Below are positions 22-64,000 of a stretch of 64,000 nucleotides of DNA, piece by piece. This DNA is from Saccoglossus kowalevskii (lineage: Eukaryota > Hemichordata > Enteropneusta > Harrimaniidae), in NCBI RefSeq assembly GCF_000003605.2, contig NW_003129358.1, positions 111,863 through 175,862 on the forward strand. The letters run 5' to 3'. A program made the translations under genes and the position numbers. Each line of letters starts with the position of its first letter. Within the stretch, counting starts at the first letter, position 1. The notes beneath the pieces were generated by a model, which did not search any database, was not told where the DNA came from, and was given only the letters and a program-made list of their open reading frames with translations.

Positions 22-102
22 TCATGGGTAGACGCTTGTTTGTAAACACTGACACGCTATGACCATCTGACCCATGCGCAGGTGACGACTCCCCCGCTTT
101 AA
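22..102 (+). mobile_element. TTAA-flanked MITE, family A, copy 1 (right half)
   Basis: This stretch matches the right half of the complete copy at 22120-22281, including the run starting TCATGGGTAG, the CATGCGCAGGTGACGACTC block and the terminal CCGCT followed by TTAA at 99-102. The left half is lost in the N run. It lies on the 3' side of exon 2 of the minus-strand receptor gene, so it is intronic or downstream in that gene. No coding capacity; non-autonomous DNA transposon remnant. Confidence 0.8.
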
Positions 103-433
103 GTATTTTGCGCACATACACGTGTTCATGCGTTCCGATAAGTCGATTGAAATGAACTTTAAATTCGAATTGGTATATGCCCCCCATAATAGTAAGTATT
201 AATAATATAAATTCAATGTTAAAAATATGTAGCATGTTTATAAAGACCGATAACTTGTTAATTTATTCAAACGGTGAATGTCCATTAAACGGAAACGGCT
301 CATACAGCTCAATCAGTAAATATATAATTTTGTAAGATTGTGCATCTGATGCTTGTTATTAATCAAGACGGGCGGTGCAACCGGGGAGGCCAATTTTACG
401 CAAGCGTCACAGTGCGAGTTTTACATATTTTGT
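103..433. other. intron or unassigned sequence
   Basis: No exon or RNA gene seen. A GC-richer patch near 370-420 begins GGGCGGTGCAACCGGGGAGG and may be eroded MITE sequence, but I could not pair it with anything. Confidence 0.5.
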
Positions 434-631
434 TTAAAGGGCGGTAGTCGTCGCGCCACGCATGCGCGAGAATGAGGGTCCATATAAACAAAGATTGCAA
501 CTGTGACTGTTGCGAAGAGTACAAACTGAGACGTTAAAAAGCTTTAATTAGATTTTTTAGGTGATTAGACTGAGTTGTCGAAGGAGTAAACGGCGGTAAT
601 CAGTGCAAGTCACGCCCAGATCAAACCTCAC
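434..631 (+). mobile_element. TTAA-bordered MITE, family C, copy 1 (3' truncated)
   Basis: It begins with TTAA (434-437) followed by AGGGCGGTAGTCGTCGCGCC. This end is the inverted counterpart of the right end of the copy at 59963-60096, which finishes with the complement of AGGGCGGTGGTCGTCGC before TTAA. The two copies share a 20-bp identical internal block (517-536 and 59965-59984) and a further diverged match up to about 631. After that this copy diverges and lacks the right terminus. Confidence 0.72.
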
Positions 632-1589
632 ACTTGTGATTTTCATTATAAGAACGCATTGGATTATGGGAAACTCAATGTTTATGAACACAAATGTCGT
701 ACAGGCGCAGCGCGATGACTACCTCCCTAAGTGGGTCACATTTCAGCTCAAGTCACATTACATATGCTGAGCTGCCTCAATGACCATGAAACACAGTACA
801 TGTATTGGCACCAGGTGTTCCCACTTGTTTAATTCTCATGGAAAACGCTTGAGGGAATATGCCTATACACACATAAAACTGGAACCCGATAATTAACGTT
901 ATGTAGTTGTTTTAATGTAACACACAAGAACCTGAATATAATTACTACACTCTCATTTAAATCACCTAAAAACCATTCTTGTCTGAGACACTAGTATAAT
1001 GCAAGTTAGTTACAACATTTAAATGTTGATATTAATGCTAGCACACTTCTTTGAATACGTTGAGCGATATTGCAACAATTACAATACTAGAGTCTCAAAC
1101 TTAACATGCATTAATTCTCTGTCAATATACATTCTGATATCACACTTAAGAGTTTCCCAAATTAGCTGGAATGAAATTATATAAATTAAATGTCGTTGAT
1201 AAAATAGTACGGCACCTTTTTTGTTAATGTTTGTACTGATTGTAAAATAACAACCGAGGCAGGTGTTGGTATTCCGGAATCACTTGTGTGATAATCTACC
1301 ATGACTAATTTCTCATACACATGTTTATTGTATGCGATATGAATAAAGCATTGCCACATCACAAATTGATTGATATTAAAAAAATATATTTTGTCAACAG
1401 AACATTGTAGAAACCAAAGTGACACATATGATATAAATTTATTTGTACTTTCGAAATGAGTGAGCACATTTTAGAACTTGTAATCGAAGGGAGTCACATT
1501 TTGGAATATTAATTTGAGGTGGGTATTTTTCTTGTTATATTACTGGTTGATATACATCCCCTTCCTCCTTGAAAATAAATGAACCTTAC
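632..1589. other. intron 2 of the receptor gene (rest beyond the window)
   Basis: The donor of exon 2 lies at its right end (GTAAG read on the minus strand just below 1590). I searched the minus strand here for the next receptor exon (start of the DRY/DRF codon, TM4 onwards) and did not find it. The remaining exons therefore probably lie beyond the left edge. Confidence 0.65.
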
Positions 1590-1689
1590 CTGTCTATTGC
1601 AATGATAGTGAGTGTGAATATGGATGCAGCCACCGACAAACCTTGTATAACTGGCGTCAGTTTACACATTATCACACCAAATGGCCATC
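1590..1689 (-). CDS. neuropeptide FF/SIFamide-type GPCR, coding exon 2 (ECL1-TM3)
   Basis: This 100-bp exon on the minus strand is too short to be found by ORF length. It follows a TTTTTTCAG acceptor and ends at a GTAAGG donor. It enters in phase 1, completing the split Gly codon of exon 1, and reads G-W-P-F, the first extracellular loop signature. The conserved Cys-Lys at the top of TM3 (the disulfide cysteine) follows, then [10 protein letters not shown] in TM3 and A-I-D-R, where the DRY/DRF box begins. It leaves in phase 2 inside the Arg codon. Join and content match NPFF receptors and the related invertebrate SIFamide receptors, which bind C-terminally amidated peptides and couple to G proteins at the plasma membrane. 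The next exon is not in the window. The alternative is another rhodopsin-like peptide receptor of the NPY/NPFF branch. Confidence 0.92.
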
Positions 1690-2439
1690 CTGAAAAAATA
1701 AACAACGTCAGAATCGTTACTCGCATCATGGACATCCATGGTCGCATTCGGACGGCGCACAATCGCCACCCGTCGCCACAACAAGTTAGTCACGTACGTC
1801 ACTGTATCATGTGCGGATAAACCACATGGGACCAGAACATCGAGAAATACAAGATTCTGGTCAAGTTAATTAATAAATTAAAACATATGCATGTATGTCT
1901 TAAACAGCGCCTTTATATTACCAGTACTAGTATTATTTCATTGTTGTTTCGTGCCATTTTGTTTGCTTAATATCCGCTAAACGATAACATACATCAACAA
2001 GTCGGCGTACGAACATAACGAATGAAGGTCACATAACACTGGAGTTTAGGTTCATTACTTAAAACTTATATATGGATTAACAATAACAAAGGAAAAATGT
2101 AATACTCTCAGCACAACAATGGCATTCTCTTAATCTATAAGATATGTCCGAGTTCCAATCGCTGTTGAAAGCAGCCAATCAACAAGCACCGTGTGTGAGG
2201 ATTTTATTTGAAAACATTTCACTGTTATTCAATTGGTCAATAAAACTTGACGTTTAGATTTGAATAATGAATTTCATAAATATCTATAAAGATGAAAGGA
2301 ACGCCTCTGGTGAGAGTGAAGATAAAAGTCATGCATGGCACAATCTCCGTTAAATATCCAATTTAAGATACATGTCAAGAGTTATGGATCCAGAAGGTGA
2401 TACTTAATTATGATATTTTGTAACATTAAAAATAATTGA

Positions 2440-2950
2440 CATTCAGTCATCTTGTATCTGATCATCAAACGAGTACTTCTCCATATTGCTCTGAACAGCA
2501 ATAATTTAAAAAAACGGCCACCATTTTGAATACATATTTATATCTATGATGTATAATAAATATATAAAATTTGAACTCGATCAGTCAAAGTATGTCAGAG
2601 ATATGGTACTAGAACCGCATTGATTTGAACAAAATGGCCGCCAGTCGGGCATTTTTAATTTGATCAGTCTGCAAAACAAAATGACGTTTATCAATAACCA
2701 ATAATGTCTAATGTATGTACCAAGTTTGAACAACATCCATCAGCCGAGAAATGCTTGGTTTTGATGATTTTTCAGTACATGAATGGCCGCTATTCGGCCA
2801 TCTTGAATCAGATCGTGAAACAAATGGATGTACAATGTATAATATTATGTACGATGTATGTGTGAAGTTTAAATGTAATCGGTCCAGGCATGTATAACAT
2901 ATAATTCCAAACGCATGGACACGCGGACGCACGGACACACGGACGCACAG
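2440..2950. repeat. tandem array of diverged ~150-bp units ending in GGACGCACGGACAC-like repeats
   Basis: The motif GGCC(G/A)CCA...TTCGGCCATCTTGAAT followed by a GATC-containing block recurs at about 2514, 2635 and 2784, with a weaker earlier copy near 2440-2470 (CAGTCATCTTGTATCTGATC). Each unit ends with a variant of AAGTTTGAAC..(A/G)ATC. The right end (2914-2949) is a short tandem of GGACGCACGGACAC-type repeats. This layout resembles non-coding repeats seen in several invertebrate genomes. It could be a SINE-like or satellite-derived element; it has no protein. Confidence 0.7.
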
Positions 2951-3477
2951 TAGTCAATATAATAGTCCTAACTGCATCCGAACGGGGACTAATAACATAA
3001 ATCTAAAACAATTGCAATAGTTAGTAATTTTATTTAACAAGCACAATAGGAATTAGAACATAATTTCAAAATCAAAACCTCACAAACGCTAAAACCAAAA
3101 ATGCAAAACACTTTAAAATCCCTGTCATTTCCTGCGTTCATTCCATACCAATAGTTTCAGAGTGTCCCATGCCTGTCTTAAAGTTAAATATCGGTTCCGT
3201 TCTAATAATTCAGATTTGTATATTGTTAGTGCTGAGTAAATATTAGTAGCACAGTGGTGATTTACATAAAGATATGTGATTGGTATATCAATGTGCATGG
3301 TACGTGGCATACTTTGTGACGTCACATCAAATCTTCCAGTAAGGCAAGGACGGGTCATAGTTTGAACCGAGTACCGAGTCAAATAACCCAGTAATGCACG
3401 GGGGATTACGCACAATGCATGAAATAATTGTTCAAAATTCTTCCGTAGAAAATACACCTACTGACAGAATGAAAATT

Positions 3478-3573
3478 TTAAAGACCGCGACGGAGGTCGT
3501 ACGACGCGTCGTGTTCAATATGGGTCCCACACGACGCGTCGAATGAGCGCTGCGTGACGATCACCGCCTTTAA
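3478..3573. mobile_element. small TTAA-flanked element (96 bp)
   Basis: It is bordered by TTAA at 3478-3481 and 3570-3573. The right end read inward is AGGCGGTGATCGTCACGC, very close to the family C terminus (AGGGCGGTGGTCGTCGC). The left end begins AGACCGCGACGGAGGTCGT. Inside, the palindrome CGACGCGTCG occurs twice (near 3503 and 3533). It looks like an internally deleted member of the same TTAA-using superfamily as families A and C. Confidence 0.6.
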
Positions 3574-4940
3574 CTTTCAAATACACTGAATGTGTTGACA
3601 TGATTCTTCACGAATATCACATCATTGCTTTCCGCATATTTCCTTGATAAATAGATCACGAATTCGTAAAGAGATTCCCGCAGGAACTCTTGTTGTTTGA
3701 AAATGAGTCCATTCGGATAAATAATGGTGGAATAAATTAGTTTCGTTACTCGTACAATGGAAATGACTATCTGTTTAAGGACGGAATACATCTCCCTCAC
3801 TCTGTGTCACATTCTATTATCGTGTCTATGTCATTTTGACGACTAAATAATTTACAATATTCACGCACAACATGTTTGCATCCAAGTGACCGAGTGAGGA
3901 TGATTGAATTAGCCTCAGTCATTATAGGTAGTACAATACAAAGGACGTAATTCAATAGAACCAAAAGGGTGTTCTTTTAAAGAGCAGATGAGAATTAATG
4001 GCGCGGCTCTGCACATTCTCGTCTCGTGGAGTACTTGCCAGTCGTACTAACGAATACAGATTAATACAAATCACGTGATTGGATATGCCTGGCAGAGAAA
4101 CTTTTTAGATAGGTAGAAGTTTGTGTTGGTTGATTGATATAACGTTGACTATACACAGTACATAGGACGTGACTATCGAGGTTACACCGCTGTTTTCTAA
4201 GTCGCGCTACCTAAGATCACTTATATTTAGCCACTCAGAGAATTTTTTTATATTTTATAATAAGGGGTCGCCCATTCGAAATAATTATGCCCGGACGAAA
4301 TGATTACACTCAATTTTTAAATAGTTCGCCAAAAATGTACGGATATGACAGAATGATAATTTTTCACCGGACAATTGGCACTGTGTACGCCATGGCATAA
4401 ATCTACATGGCTTATGGTATGGGTTTTGATATTACCTCCGTCCTGTCAAGTTACAAATTCAACATATCCACACCCTAGTTTTGTTCTTGGGTTTTATAGT
4501 TTGACGCAGGCACTCATTAGAATTGACAAATAGGCGGAAAATGAAACTTTTTGATTTTTGAAATAGTCAAAAATCGAATCCAAAAACACCCTTTTTCTTT
4601 TATTTCTAGATATATAATACACAACCTCAAATGCGTGACGTGCGTATACGTGTTGAACGGTTTTAAAATATTCCATACTACGCAATTGCTTATTGGAGGA
4701 TGAGTACCAAATAATTTTGTGAAACCACAGAAACTTTAATATGGTGCCAGGGCCGCCAGTGACAAGTCATCAGAGACGATCATTTACAGTATTGGCTGTA
4801 TATTCTATACAAGACACATCGTAGCAATGTAGCTGTTGCATTTCTATGCTACATCATATTGAAACATACACCGAAATCAATCTCATATACGTATGTTAGA
4901 AAGGTGCTTACGTCATACCCAAAATACAAACGTAACTTAC

Positions 4941-5208
4941 CTTCTAATATATTCCCAACAAGTGTAATAGGCATGCAGAATATTGCCACTAGTATATCAG
5001 CGACTGCCAGATTTACGATGAAGAAGTTTGTAACTGTATGCATACGGGGGTTCCGGGCCACGACCAGGCATACTAATGAGTTCCCAATCAAACACATAAG
5101 AAATATGAACACATAGGCGCAAATATAGATGCTTGTTATGAGAGGACCGTTCTTTAAATACGGTTGAATTTCCCTGGTTTCGTTGCTGTAATTACGTACG
5201 AAATCCAT
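4941..5208 (-). CDS. neuropeptide FF/SIFamide-type GPCR, coding exon 1 (N-terminus, TM1, TM2)
   Basis: This is the first coding exon of a rhodopsin-like peptide receptor on the minus strand. The ATG at 5208-5206 has a good context (AAAATGG). The short extracellular N-terminus has two N-glycosylation sequons (N6-Y-S and N9-E-T). TM1 (about residues 24-46) carries the class A G-N-S-L-V motif. The first intracellular loop is R-M-H-T-V-T-N, a hallmark of NPFF and SIFamide receptors. TM2 contains N-L-A-V-A-D-I-L-V and F-C-M-P-I-T-L. The exon ends in ...G-N-I-L-E plus one base at a GAAG|GTAAG donor, and the split Gly codon is completed by exon 2. The open frame continues about 30 codons past the donor, but that part is intronic and not receptor-like. 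It is closest in pattern to NPFFR/SIFaR; which one cannot be decided from 89 residues. Confidence 0.94.
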
Positions 5209-17311: not shown

Positions 17312-17773
17312 CTACATATCAAGTGTCAAAGCAATTGGACAGATGGTTTTCAAGAAGAAGTCAAAAATCTAATTGCTAACGAATGGATGAAAAACGATGA
17401 ACATCTCTGGCCTGTCATCTCAGACGACACTAAAAAGGTAATTCAGAAACGTGTTGTCGTTTTTGGAAAACATTTACCTAAAAAAAACTTGTCTATACCC
17501 GTGGCGCCAGTATATCAACAGTCCGTGAAACTACGTGAATGTAAATTCGACATTGAGCAAGGTTACATCACGTCATCTAATACAGGTATATTGCCGGTAT
17601 TCGAAACACGCAAAAGGAGATCAGTAGCGTGTCTCGTGCACGTTAACGGCGTTAAACACTACGATACTCAGCTTTATCATACGTATACAGAATTTACAAA
17701 TGATGAGACATGGTGCAATTACGGATTGTTACAAGTCATGCCCGTCACAGCTGATGACTTCCTAACTTCATAG
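17312..17773 (+). CDS. unidentified protein-like reading frame
   Basis: An open frame of 153 codons follows a TAA at 17309-17311; the first ATG is at 17387, giving 128 residues, and a TAG ends it at 17771. Its codons include more C- and G-ending triplets than the surrounding DNA, and its composition looks like a folded soluble protein: several Trp, Cys-rich only near the ends, a basic R-K-R-R patch around residue 72 of the ATG form, no signal peptide, no membrane helix. I recognise no family or catalytic motif. The stretch upstream of the ATG also reads as plausible protein, so the true start may lie further left or the frame may be an exon or a broken gene. A second reading frame follows on the same strand after 70 bases. 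Possible sources are a retrocopy, an unknown mobile element or captured foreign DNA. Chance is also possible. Confidence 0.4.
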   Translation, partial: LHIKCQSNWTDGFQEEVKNLIANEWMKNDEHLWPVISDDTKKVIQKRVVVFGKHLPKKNLSIPVAPVYQQSVKLRECKFDIEQGYITSSNTGILPVFETRKRRSVACLVHVNGVKHYDTQLYHTYTEFTNDETWCNYGLLQVMPVTADDFLTS

Positions 17774-22119: not shown

Positions 22120-22281
22120 TTAAAGCGGGAGGGTCGTCACCTGCACACGCGCGGGAATTGAGTCCCAAGCGACGATAACAACGCACGCTAAAAACGCAAA
22201 GGCTCATGGGTAGGGTGTTTGTAAACAATGACACGCTATGGCCATCTGACGCATGCGCAGGTGACGACTCCTCCGCTTTAA
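22120..22281. mobile_element. complete TTAA-flanked MITE, family A, copy 2
   Basis: The element is 162 bp including TTAA at both borders (22120-22123 and 22278-22281). Its ends are inverted: AGCGGGAGGGTCGTCACCTG on the left, and the right end read inward is AGCGGAGGAGTCGTCACCTG. The right half matches 22-102 and the left half, inverted, matches 43023-43099, so its limits are defined by three copies. TTAA targets are typical of piggyBac and some Kolobok-type elements. It encodes nothing and would need a transposase supplied elsewhere. Confidence 0.88.
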
Positions 22282-27675: not shown

Positions 27676-28184
27676 AAAAAATGCTATATGAATTAGAAGT
27701 ACAAATTATAATGCAGATCACGTATCAATCGATNNNNNNNNNNNNNNNNNNNNNNNNNNNNNNNNNNNNNNNNNNNNNNNNNNNNNNNNNNNNNNNNNNN
27801 NNNNNNNNNNNNNNNNNNNNNNNNNNNNNNNNNNNNNNNNNNNNNNNNNNNNNNNNNNNNNNNNNNNNNNNNNNNNNNNNNNNNNNNNNNNNNNNNNNNN
27901 NNNNNNNNNNNNNNNNNNNNNNNNNNNNNNNNNNNNNNNNNNNNNNNNNNNNNNNNNNNNNNNNNNNNNNNNNNNNNNNNNNNNNNNNNNNNNNNNNNNN
28001 NNNNNNNNNNNNNNNNNNNNNNNNNNNNNNNNNNNNNNNNNNNNNNNNNNNNNNNNNNNNNNNNNNNNNNNNNNNNNNNNNNNNNNNNNNNNNNNNNNNN
28101 NNNNNNNNNNNNNNNNNNNNNNNNNAAAAAATGCTATATGAATTAGAAGTACAAAATTATAATGCAGATCACGTATCAATCGAT
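27676..28184. other. assembly gap flanked by duplicated sequence
   Basis: N bases run from 27734 to 28125 (392). The 58 bp before the gap (27676-27733) and the 59 bp after it (28126-28184) are the same sequence apart from one extra A in a homopolymer. Two contig ends overlap and were joined with a gap instead of being merged. Any frame running through the Ns is meaningless. Confidence 0.95.
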
Positions 28185-48699: not shown

Positions 48700-49265
48700 T
48701 TATTCCCTAGCCCTGCGTACAGTGCTGTGTGTACGGGACGCGTTCAGTTGATAGATGTCCCCACCACAGCCCTGCGTACCTCCATAGACAAAGTACGGGA
48801 CTTTGAAAAATATAATTTTTTTAATGAAATAGCATGCCCAGGTACCAAAAATGGTGATCGATCACCAGATATATCCAGAACTCCCAGTTCGGAGTCCAAT
48901 TGTGGATGAAATCGGCTACTTTGACCTAAAAACAAACACATTCTCTTGCGTGCGTGAATGAAATTAAAAATGGCGGCGCTTGGTGGATAATTTCTCCAGT
49001 ACCTACGCGTTTACATTTTGTCCGTCTTTACTAGTCGCATTTTAAAGACATTTCAGTTTCAGATAACTTTGTAATGGTTGTTACGGATAACTCTCGTCAT
49101 TTCAACCGATTTCGGCTGGGAAACTACTTATTTTTAACTTGCGCACCAATTACGGTGCGCTCCCTCCCGGACTTTGTCTATGGAGGTACGCAGGGCTGTG
49201 GTGGGGACATCTATCAACCGAACGCGTCCCGTACACACAGCACTGTACGCAGGGCTAGTTATTCC
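48700..49265. mobile_element. 552-bp element with 94-bp terminal inverted repeats and 7-bp target duplication
   Basis: The left repeat (48707-48800) and right repeat (49165-49258) are reverse complements over 94 bp with two differences. Both begin CTAGCCCTGCGTACAGTGC. Identical TTATTCC flanks lie at 48700-48706 and 49259-49265 (an 8-bp reading, TTATTCCC, is possible if the outermost C is not counted in the element). Each repeat contains AGCCCTGCGTAC twice, at its tip and about 60 bp in. Just inside the right arm is a perfect hairpin, GCGCACC-AATTAC-GGTGCGC at 49141-49160. No transposase is encoded. A 7-8 bp duplication fits hAT-, P- or related superfamilies, but the termini lack the hAT consensus CAG.G. 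Confidence 0.93.
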
Positions 49266-62945: not shown

Positions 62946-64000
62946 ATACTCAATATATTCACAATAAATGCACACGATGGTATTTCGTCAATAAATATTT
63001 CTCATGACGTCATCTCATCTGATCACTTTCCTTTGACTGTTCGTCTGAACATTGACAAACTTCCTACAATAGAAACTCGTCGACTGTGTGGTGTAGTTTG
63101 TAATACTGACAATCTACCTGTGAATTGGGATAAGATATCTTCCAGTCAACTTAATGACTATCGTGAAATGTCGGACAGATTATTAAAAGAAGTGACCATA
63201 CCCATTGAATCTATTAGCTGTAAAAATGCTAATTGTCATGTTGCTAGTCATCGTGACAACTTGCATACATTTTATTGTTATATAGTAACTGCACTTAATT
63301 CTTCCACTCGTAACATTCAACATACTCCACGAAATAAATCTGTTAATCTGGTTCCTGGCTGGAACGAAGCTGTAAAGGAAGTTTATGATGCATCCAGGGA
63401 CGCTTTTAAACGGTGGGTGTCATTTGGTAAGCCCCGTTACGGTCCAATCTATGAATTAATGCGCAAGACCCGGGCTCAATTTAAGCGTGTATTTCGTGCA
63501 TGTCGTGGGGATGAAGACCGCATTAAAGCTGATAAAATTGCTACACATCATTGTAATAAAGATTTGGAAAGAAGTAAACTCTGATAAAGTAAACCAATTC
63601 ATTTCTTGTTGTGTAGATGGTCAGTCTACTGAAGTGGATATTGCTGATATGTGGAAAGACCATTTCTCCAGTATTCTAAATTCTGTAAAAAAAATTGCGA
63701 ATCTCGTGATTCAGTTGAGGCCAGTTTAGGTAATATTATGTTTCACCCATCTATGATTATTCAAGTAGCCGAGGTAAAAGAATACATTATGGGATTATCG
63801 GGATGGAAGGCGGTTGGGACTGACGATATTTCTCCCGAACACCTAAAACACGCCAGTGATAGTTTATATGTACTCTTGTCGTTGTGCATGACAGGCATGC
63901 TTGTTCATGGTTATTTGCCAAATGAACTGTTAGAAACTATCATTGTCCCAATTATAAAAGATCGCTCGGGCGATATCACTTCCCGTGACAATTATCGTCC
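62946..64000 (+). pseudogene. non-LTR retrotransposon (LINE) ORF2: end of APE endonuclease to start of reverse transcriptase
   Basis: The frame opens after a TAA. It reads I-N-A-H-D-G-I-S-S and S-S-D-H-F-P-L, the S-D-H motif at the C-terminal end of LINE APE endonucleases. Next comes the linker with P-G-W-N-E-A-V-K-E (63353 on), G-K-P-R-Y-G-P and R-A-Q-F-K-R. Near 63561-63572 the frame shifts and continues as W-K-E-V-N-S, then M-W-K-D-H-F-S. A second shift coincides with an eight-A run at 63687-63694. The third frame carries the fingers of the reverse transcriptase: G-T-D-D-I-S-P-E-H-L-K, then P-I-I-K-D-R-S-G-D-I and D-N-Y-R-P at the window's end. Order and motifs match the jockey/CR1-type LINE polyproteins common in fish and invertebrates. 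The copy is inactive unless the indels are assembly errors; the palm (YADD) lies beyond the edge. Confidence 0.9.

What the first reader, a model, noticed from the sequence alone, without database searches (positions are those of the whole stretch)
1590..5208. Two exons of an NPFF/SIFamide-type neuropeptide receptor joined in phase across a repeat-bearing intron
Seen: exon 1 ends GAAG|GTAAG and exon 2 follows TTTTTTCAG. The split codon gives Gly before W-P-F, restoring the expected extracellular loop 1. Known: NPFF and SIFamide receptors share R-M-x-T-V-T-N, F-C-(M/L)-P, and Q-G-x-S-V-x-A-S. Inference: the gene is real, and the rest (TM4-TM7) lies left of the window. The 100-bp exon would be missed by ORF-length methods.
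Basis: partly seen in the sequence, partly recalled or inferred. Interest (0 to 1): 0.7.

Follow-up and report, generated by a model that had tools for sequence, protein, structure and literature searches.

The report
Complete NPFF/SIFamide-type neuropeptide receptor gene
The two exons are the start of an ordinary, apparently intact gene for a brain-peptide receptor related to human NPFF receptors, and its missing last exon lies about 12.5 kb to the left of the window; the only unusual points are two changed residues in usually fixed receptor motifs.

Summary
On the minus strand, exon 1 (5208-4941) and exon 2 (1689-1590, 100 bp) have GT-AG borders and join in phase through a split Gly codon. 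The joined 122 residues match Pfam 7tm_1 at 9.7e-26 and, best in the PDB, human NPFFR2 at 9.6e-38. The three exons give one open 372-residue frame. It scores 307.7 bits to NPFFR2 and 297.3 to NPFFR1, against 207.8 for the next family, orexin receptor 1. In a tree of 25 sequences it groups with NPFFR1/2 at 100/99. Among the candidates scored, no comparable second locus was found in the genome. It is a new member of a known kind. Mild oddities are DRH in place of DRY/DRF and Met in place of the TM6 Trp. The animal's phylum was not determined; expression, splicing in RNA and ligand are untested.

The parts
4941..5208 (-). Coding exon 1: ATG (5208-5206), N-terminus, TM1, TM2; ends in phase 1 (GAAG|GTAAG)
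   Evidence: Sequence and translation; 7tm_1 6.7e-14; 189.7 bits at its own locus, next locus in the genome 91 bits
1690..4940 (-). Intron 1, 3251 bp, GT...AG, phase 1
1590..1689 (-). Coding exon 2, 100 bp: end of extracellular loop 1 and TM3 up to the Arg codon of the DRY-equivalent motif; ends in phase 2 (GACAG|GTAAGG)
   Evidence: 32 aa alone best PDB hit NPFFR2 1.1e-8
22..1589 (-). 5' part of intron 2 (14,126 bp in all, with a run of N). The intron runs out of the window to coding exon 3 at G000:C2107:99325-98575 (-), 751 bp including the stop, which corresponds to window positions -12537 to -13287 and encodes TM4-TM7 and the C-tail
   Evidence: Window placed on C2107:111863-175862; left flank fetched; exon found and acceptor TTTATTTCAG|GCAC read; full CDS; exon 3 gives 564.3 bits at its own locus, next locus 90.4 bits

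Best explanation
This is a complete, apparently intact three-exon gene for a seven-transmembrane neuropeptide receptor of the NPFF/GnIH/SIFamide family, on the minus strand. Shown: open 372-codon frame, three in-phase coding exons with GT-AG introns, closest affinity to human NPFFR1/2, and no second locus of comparable similarity among the candidates scored in this genome. Inferred from family knowledge: the protein sits in the membrane of neurons or their targets, binds a short peptide with an amidated C-terminal Phe, and signals through heterotrimeric G proteins.
For: In-phase splice junctions at both introns. Full-length PDB scores: NPFFR2 307.7 and NPFFR1 297.3 bits, then orexin receptor 1 207.8, QRFPR 172.5, NPY2R 166.0. 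Tree of 25 rows (window, 5 human, 19 from the same genome): window + NPFFR1 + NPFFR2 at 100/99. Identity 147/303 (48.5%) to NPFFR2 and 138/306 (45.1%) to NPFFR1; human OX2R 114/291 (39.2%); the best longer own-genome alignments are L035 111/283 (39.2%) and L022 116/305 (38.0%), and shorter ones reach 91/213 (42.7%, L019). Of 43 columns where NPFFR1 = NPFFR2 and at most 10% of the other rows with a letter agree, the window shares 11; the best other row shares 5. The TM7 string FAHWLAF is identical in both NPFFRs and in none of the 18 other rows that cover it. Genome searches: exon 1 at 189.7 bits, next locus 91; exon 3 at 564.3 bits, next 90.4.
Against: Two family-typical residues differ: DRH where NPFFR2 has DRF and NPFFR1 has ERF, and Met where both have the TM6 Trp. 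The window shares only 11 of 43 NPFFR-diagnostic columns, so it is well diverged. No invertebrate SIFamide receptor was available for the tree. No transcript evidence. Exons 2 and 3 are separated by a run of N (C2107:111834-111883), so their linkage rests on the scaffold plus the phase and sequence match.
Confidence: 0.93

Rival explanations
1. A member of a neighbouring peptide-receptor family (orexin/allatotropin, QRFP, NPY/NPF, PrRP/sNPF or luqin type) that only resembles NPFFR.
For: These families share motifs; orexin receptor 1 scores 207.8 bits over most of the length and human OX2R is 39.2% identical.
Against: A gap of about 100 bits to NPFFR2; 100/99 support for the NPFFR grouping; the same genome holds separate QRFPR-like (L021, 253.5 bits to QRFPR) and PRLHR-like (L035, 224.6 bits) receptors that fall elsewhere in the tree. 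NPY and luqin receptors were not in the tree.
Confidence: 0.04
2. A decaying or non-signalling paralog: the DRH and TM6 Met changes mark loss of normal G-protein activation.
For: Met at the TM6 position is unique among the 21 rows that cover it; 48.5% identity to NPFFR2 is moderate.
Against: No stop or frameshift in 372 codons and all splice sites canonical. DRH also occurs in another receptor of the same genome (L037), and human QRFPR has ERH. Human OX2R also lacks the Trp, having Tyr. No more canonical NPFFR copy was found among the candidates scored.
Confidence: 0.1
3. Exons 1-2 belong to a fragment or pseudogene, and the TM4-TM7 exon belongs to a different receptor nearby.
For: The contig has long runs of N left of the window (60772-95451 and 111834-111883 of C2107), which could hide exons.
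Against: The same strand, phase 2 on both sides of intron 2 and an ungapped match across the junction to NPFFR2. Of the 150 TM1-TM3 matches listed for the genome, the only two on C2107 are this gene's exons 1 and 2, and of 133 TM4-TM7 matches the only one on C2107 is exon 3.
Confidence: 0.03

Closest known systems
Human neuropeptide FF receptor 2 (NPFFR2, GPR74)
   Same: Best PDB match, 307.7 bits; 147/303 identical; shared FCMPITL, WPFG..MCK, QG.SVAAS, FAHWLAF.NS.VNPI.YG, NFRRGF
   Different: DRH instead of DRF; SMLP instead of SWLP; extracellular loop 2 about 7 residues shorter
Human neuropeptide FF receptor 1 (NPFFR1, GPR147, GnIH receptor)
   Same: 297.3 bits; 138/306 identical
   Different: ERF and SWLP in NPFFR1
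SIFamide receptors of protostomes
   Same: Published as orthologs of NPFF/GnIH receptors (PMC4062910, passages; PMC5860471, passages)
   Different: Not compared: no SIFamide receptor sequence was reachable with the tools
Orexin receptors (human OX1R, OX2R)
   Same: Next family by score, 207.8 bits
   Different: About 100 bits lower; OX2R does not group with the window protein

Membership tests
Rhodopsin-type GPCR (Pfam 7tm_1) | Match over the curated cut-off | tested here: met
   91.2 bits against cut-off 30.5 for exons 1+2 joined; exon 3 continues through TM7 with NPIVY
NPFF/GnIH/SIFamide receptor family | Closer to NPFFR1/2 than to any other receptor family compared | tested here: met
   comparison sets are PDB proteins and a tree with 5 human and 19 own-genome receptors
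NPFF/GnIH/SIFamide receptor family | Shared NPFFR-specific residues | tested here: met
   11 of 43 diagnostic columns, next best row 5 of 43; FAHWLAF identical
NPFF/GnIH/SIFamide receptor family | Groups with deorphanised SIFamide receptors in a broad bilaterian tree | not testable with these tools
   No collection of invertebrate proteins is on hand
NPFF/GnIH/SIFamide receptor family | Activation by a C-terminally amidated F-amide peptide | not testable with these tools
   Needs a cell assay
Canonical class A activation motifs | DRY-type motif, Trp of the TM6 toggle, NPxxY | tested here: inconclusive
   NPIVY present; DRH instead of DRY/DRF; Met instead of Trp in TM6. These motifs do not define the NPFFR family

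The most novel reading that the evidence does not exclude
The only NPFF/SIFamide-type receptor found in this animal activates without the conserved TM6 toggle Trp and with DRH, so it has an altered activation switch. If the animal belongs to a lineage suggested to have lost this receptor (echinoderms in PMC4062910, passages), the gene would also overturn that loss.
Probability: 0.08. Interest if true: 0.55.

Novelty: new member of a known kind. Interest (0 to 1): 0.22.

Why it matters
It adds one more apparently intact NPFF-type receptor, with a full gene model, to a family that links vertebrate GnIH/NPFF with protostome SIFamide signalling. The two motif changes make it a small natural test of how class A receptors signal without the usual switch residues.

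Tried and rejected
Rejected: orexin, QRFP and PrRP type as the family (scores and tree) and NPY type (scores only). Rejected: a TM4-TM7 exon inside the window left of 1590; I recognised none by eye among the frames of 30 aa or more listed there. The motif scan of the 111,862 bases left of the window, much of it N, returned one frame, that of exon 3.

Led nowhere: Rfam (gathering threshold) and tRNA scans of the window (0 hits); Pfam scans of 20 other long frames of the window (no match over a curated cut-off; one sub-threshold match at E 0.044). Identification of the animal failed. mir-2 (RF00047) gave no match, but only 60 of 112,269 candidates were scored, the control panel rang in one bacterium of 14 genomes, and the planned positive control (RF00239) did not complete, so nothing follows from it. 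A COX1 search (PF00115) did not complete. Paper searches by assembly size found nothing useful, nor did those for an NPFFR intron map (passages of PMC4133751). Of the other paper searches, one search found nothing, searches found the reviews cited, and one search added nothing that I used. The DRY-site phase-2 intron is not used as evidence of kinship, because PMC3151243 (passages) reports repeated insertions at this site in different animal lineages.

Full report
Observation. The gene is on the minus strand. Exon 1 (5208-4941) starts with ATG in the context AAAATGG and ends GAAG|GTAAG. Exon 2 (1689-1590) follows TTTTTTCAG and ends GACAG|GTAAGG. Exon 1 is 268 bp (phase 1), exon 2 is 100 bp (phase 2), and the split codon G|GA gives Gly before Trp-Pro-Phe. 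The joined 122 residues score 91.2 bits to Pfam 7tm_1; exon 1 alone scores 52.4 bits and exon 2 alone 28.1, just under the 30.5 cut-off. Against the PDB the joined piece hits human NPFFR2 (9.6e-38), NPFFR1 (1.7e-35), then orexin receptor 1 (4.8e-27). The 32 residues of exon 2 alone also hit NPFFR2 first (1.1e-8). Splice signals by themselves are weak evidence: on this strand of the first 5208 bases, 96 YAG and 6 GTRAG sites form 16 pairs 60-200 bp apart. Two details of the finding need correction: the human receptors read HMHTVTN, not RM-TVTN, and intron 1 holds only a 38-bp tandem repeat, with no other copy in the DNA I held. The stretch 22-1589, part of intron 2, does hold dispersed repeats.

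The missing part. The window is G000:C2107:111863-175862, in a 572-Mb genome of 4830 contigs. I fetched all 111,862 positions to the left. They contain runs of N at 10498-50276, 60772-95451 and 111834-111862, and the last continues as the 21 N at the window start; these may be assembly gaps or stretches that the tool withholds. A scan for TM6/TM7 motifs on both strands gave one frame, C2107:98578-99348 minus. An acceptor TTTATTTCAG lies before 99325; with the AG of exon 2 it gives Arg, and the sequence reads IAID-R-HNNIVNPLRPR without a gap against NPFFR2. The joined coding sequence is 1119 nt, 372 codons and a stop, with introns of 3251 and 14,126 bp.

Identity. Full length, NPFFR2 scores 307.7 bits and NPFFR1 297.3; orexin receptor 1 follows at 207.8, QRFPR at 172.5, NPY2R at 166.0. 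I built a tree from 25 rows: the window protein, five human receptors copied from PDB alignments, and 19 receptor frames of the same genome, out of 25 loci then fetched by the genome search. Six loci were left out: L018 is the window gene itself, L020, L029 and L034 give short exons, L030 and L031 are further C593 copies. The window groups with NPFFR1 and NPFFR2 at 100/99. L021 falls with human QRFPR (93/94, together with L037) and L035 with human PRLHR (95/91), in line with their best PDB hits. The long-branch warning of that tree concerns L036 and L037, and the composition warning hs_PRLHR, not the window. Pairwise, the window is 48.5% identical to NPFFR2 (147/303) and 45.1% to NPFFR1 (138/306); OX2R and L035 reach 39.2%, and shorter own-genome alignments up to 42.7%. 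Of 43 columns where both human NPFFRs agree and at most 10% of the other rows with a letter there do, the window shares 11; the best other row shares 5. The 11 of 43 also says that the protein is well diverged from the human pair.

Copy number. With exons 1+2 the genome search lists 150 matches (150 of 396 candidates scored). The window's exon 1 gives 189.7 bits and the next locus 91 bits at 49% identity. With exon 3 it lists 133 matches (150 of 386 candidates scored): 564.3 bits for the gene's own exon, next 90.4 bits at 37%. No second copy of comparable similarity was found; the tool scores only the best candidates of a first look.

Oddities. The DRY-equivalent is DRH, and the TM6 motif is VSMLP where both NPFFRs have LSWLP; NPIVY is intact. 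Of the 21 rows that cover TM6, 19 have Trp, human OX2R has Tyr and the window has Met. DRH occurs in L037 of the same genome, and human QRFPR has ERH, so the His is not alarming. PMC3151243 (passages) gives [DEHLIS]R[YFSN] as the variation in the DRY motifs it characterised in vertebrate receptors, which does not include His in third place. The same passages say that introns at this site were inserted repeatedly in different animal lineages in the same phase, so intron 2 is no proof of kinship.

Function. Published work treats vertebrate NPFF/GnIH receptors and protostome SIFamide receptors as orthologs. It reports SIFamide-type peptides in lophotrochozoans, a receptor in a hemichordate, an expanded receptor family in amphioxus, absence in a sea squirt, and no receptor found in a sea urchin, hence a suggested loss in echinoderms (PMC4062910, passages; PMC5860471, passages; PMC6200920, passages). 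I infer a peptide-gated G-protein-coupled receptor for an amidated F-amide peptide. The phylum of this animal is unknown to me. If it were an echinoderm the gene would contradict the suggested loss; nothing here shows that it is.

Verdict. The finding is correct in observation and, as far as tested, in interpretation, and the predicted exon exists. The gene is an ordinary new member of a known receptor family, with two mildly unusual motif residues. Not shown: expression, splicing in RNA, ligand, G-protein coupling, species.

Noticed in passing
G000:C593 (L019, L027, L028, L030, L031, L033): Six receptor frames on one contig among the hits; 3 of the 5 C593 rows carry in-frame stops within the longer profile match. 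A lineage-specific expansion with possible pseudogenes, or introns read through as stops.
   Followed up: partly
L021 (G000:C3178) and L035 (G000:C2106): Receptors in single open frames closest to human QRFPR (253.5 bits) and human PRLHR (224.6 bits); this genome keeps several RFamide-type receptor families.
   Followed up: partly
window 62946-63998 (+): Two adjacent frames (212 and 117 aa, the second reaching the window end) that look by eye like the region before and at the start of a non-LTR reverse transcriptase (motif recalled, not tested); no Pfam match.
   Followed up: partly
window 48707-48800 and 49165-49258: Inverted repeat of 94-nt arms, 98% complementary, 364 nt apart; no other copy in the DNA held. 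Possible MITE or hairpin.
   Followed up: partly
window 37-102, 22216-22281 and further places in L006, L012: Dispersed repeat of about 60-90 bp, 85-94% identical, also next to the run of N at the window start.
   Followed up: partly
window 17312-17770 (+): Open frame of 153 aa without a Pfam match; second longest frame in the window.
   Followed up: no
window 27734-28125: Run of 392 N.
   Followed up: no
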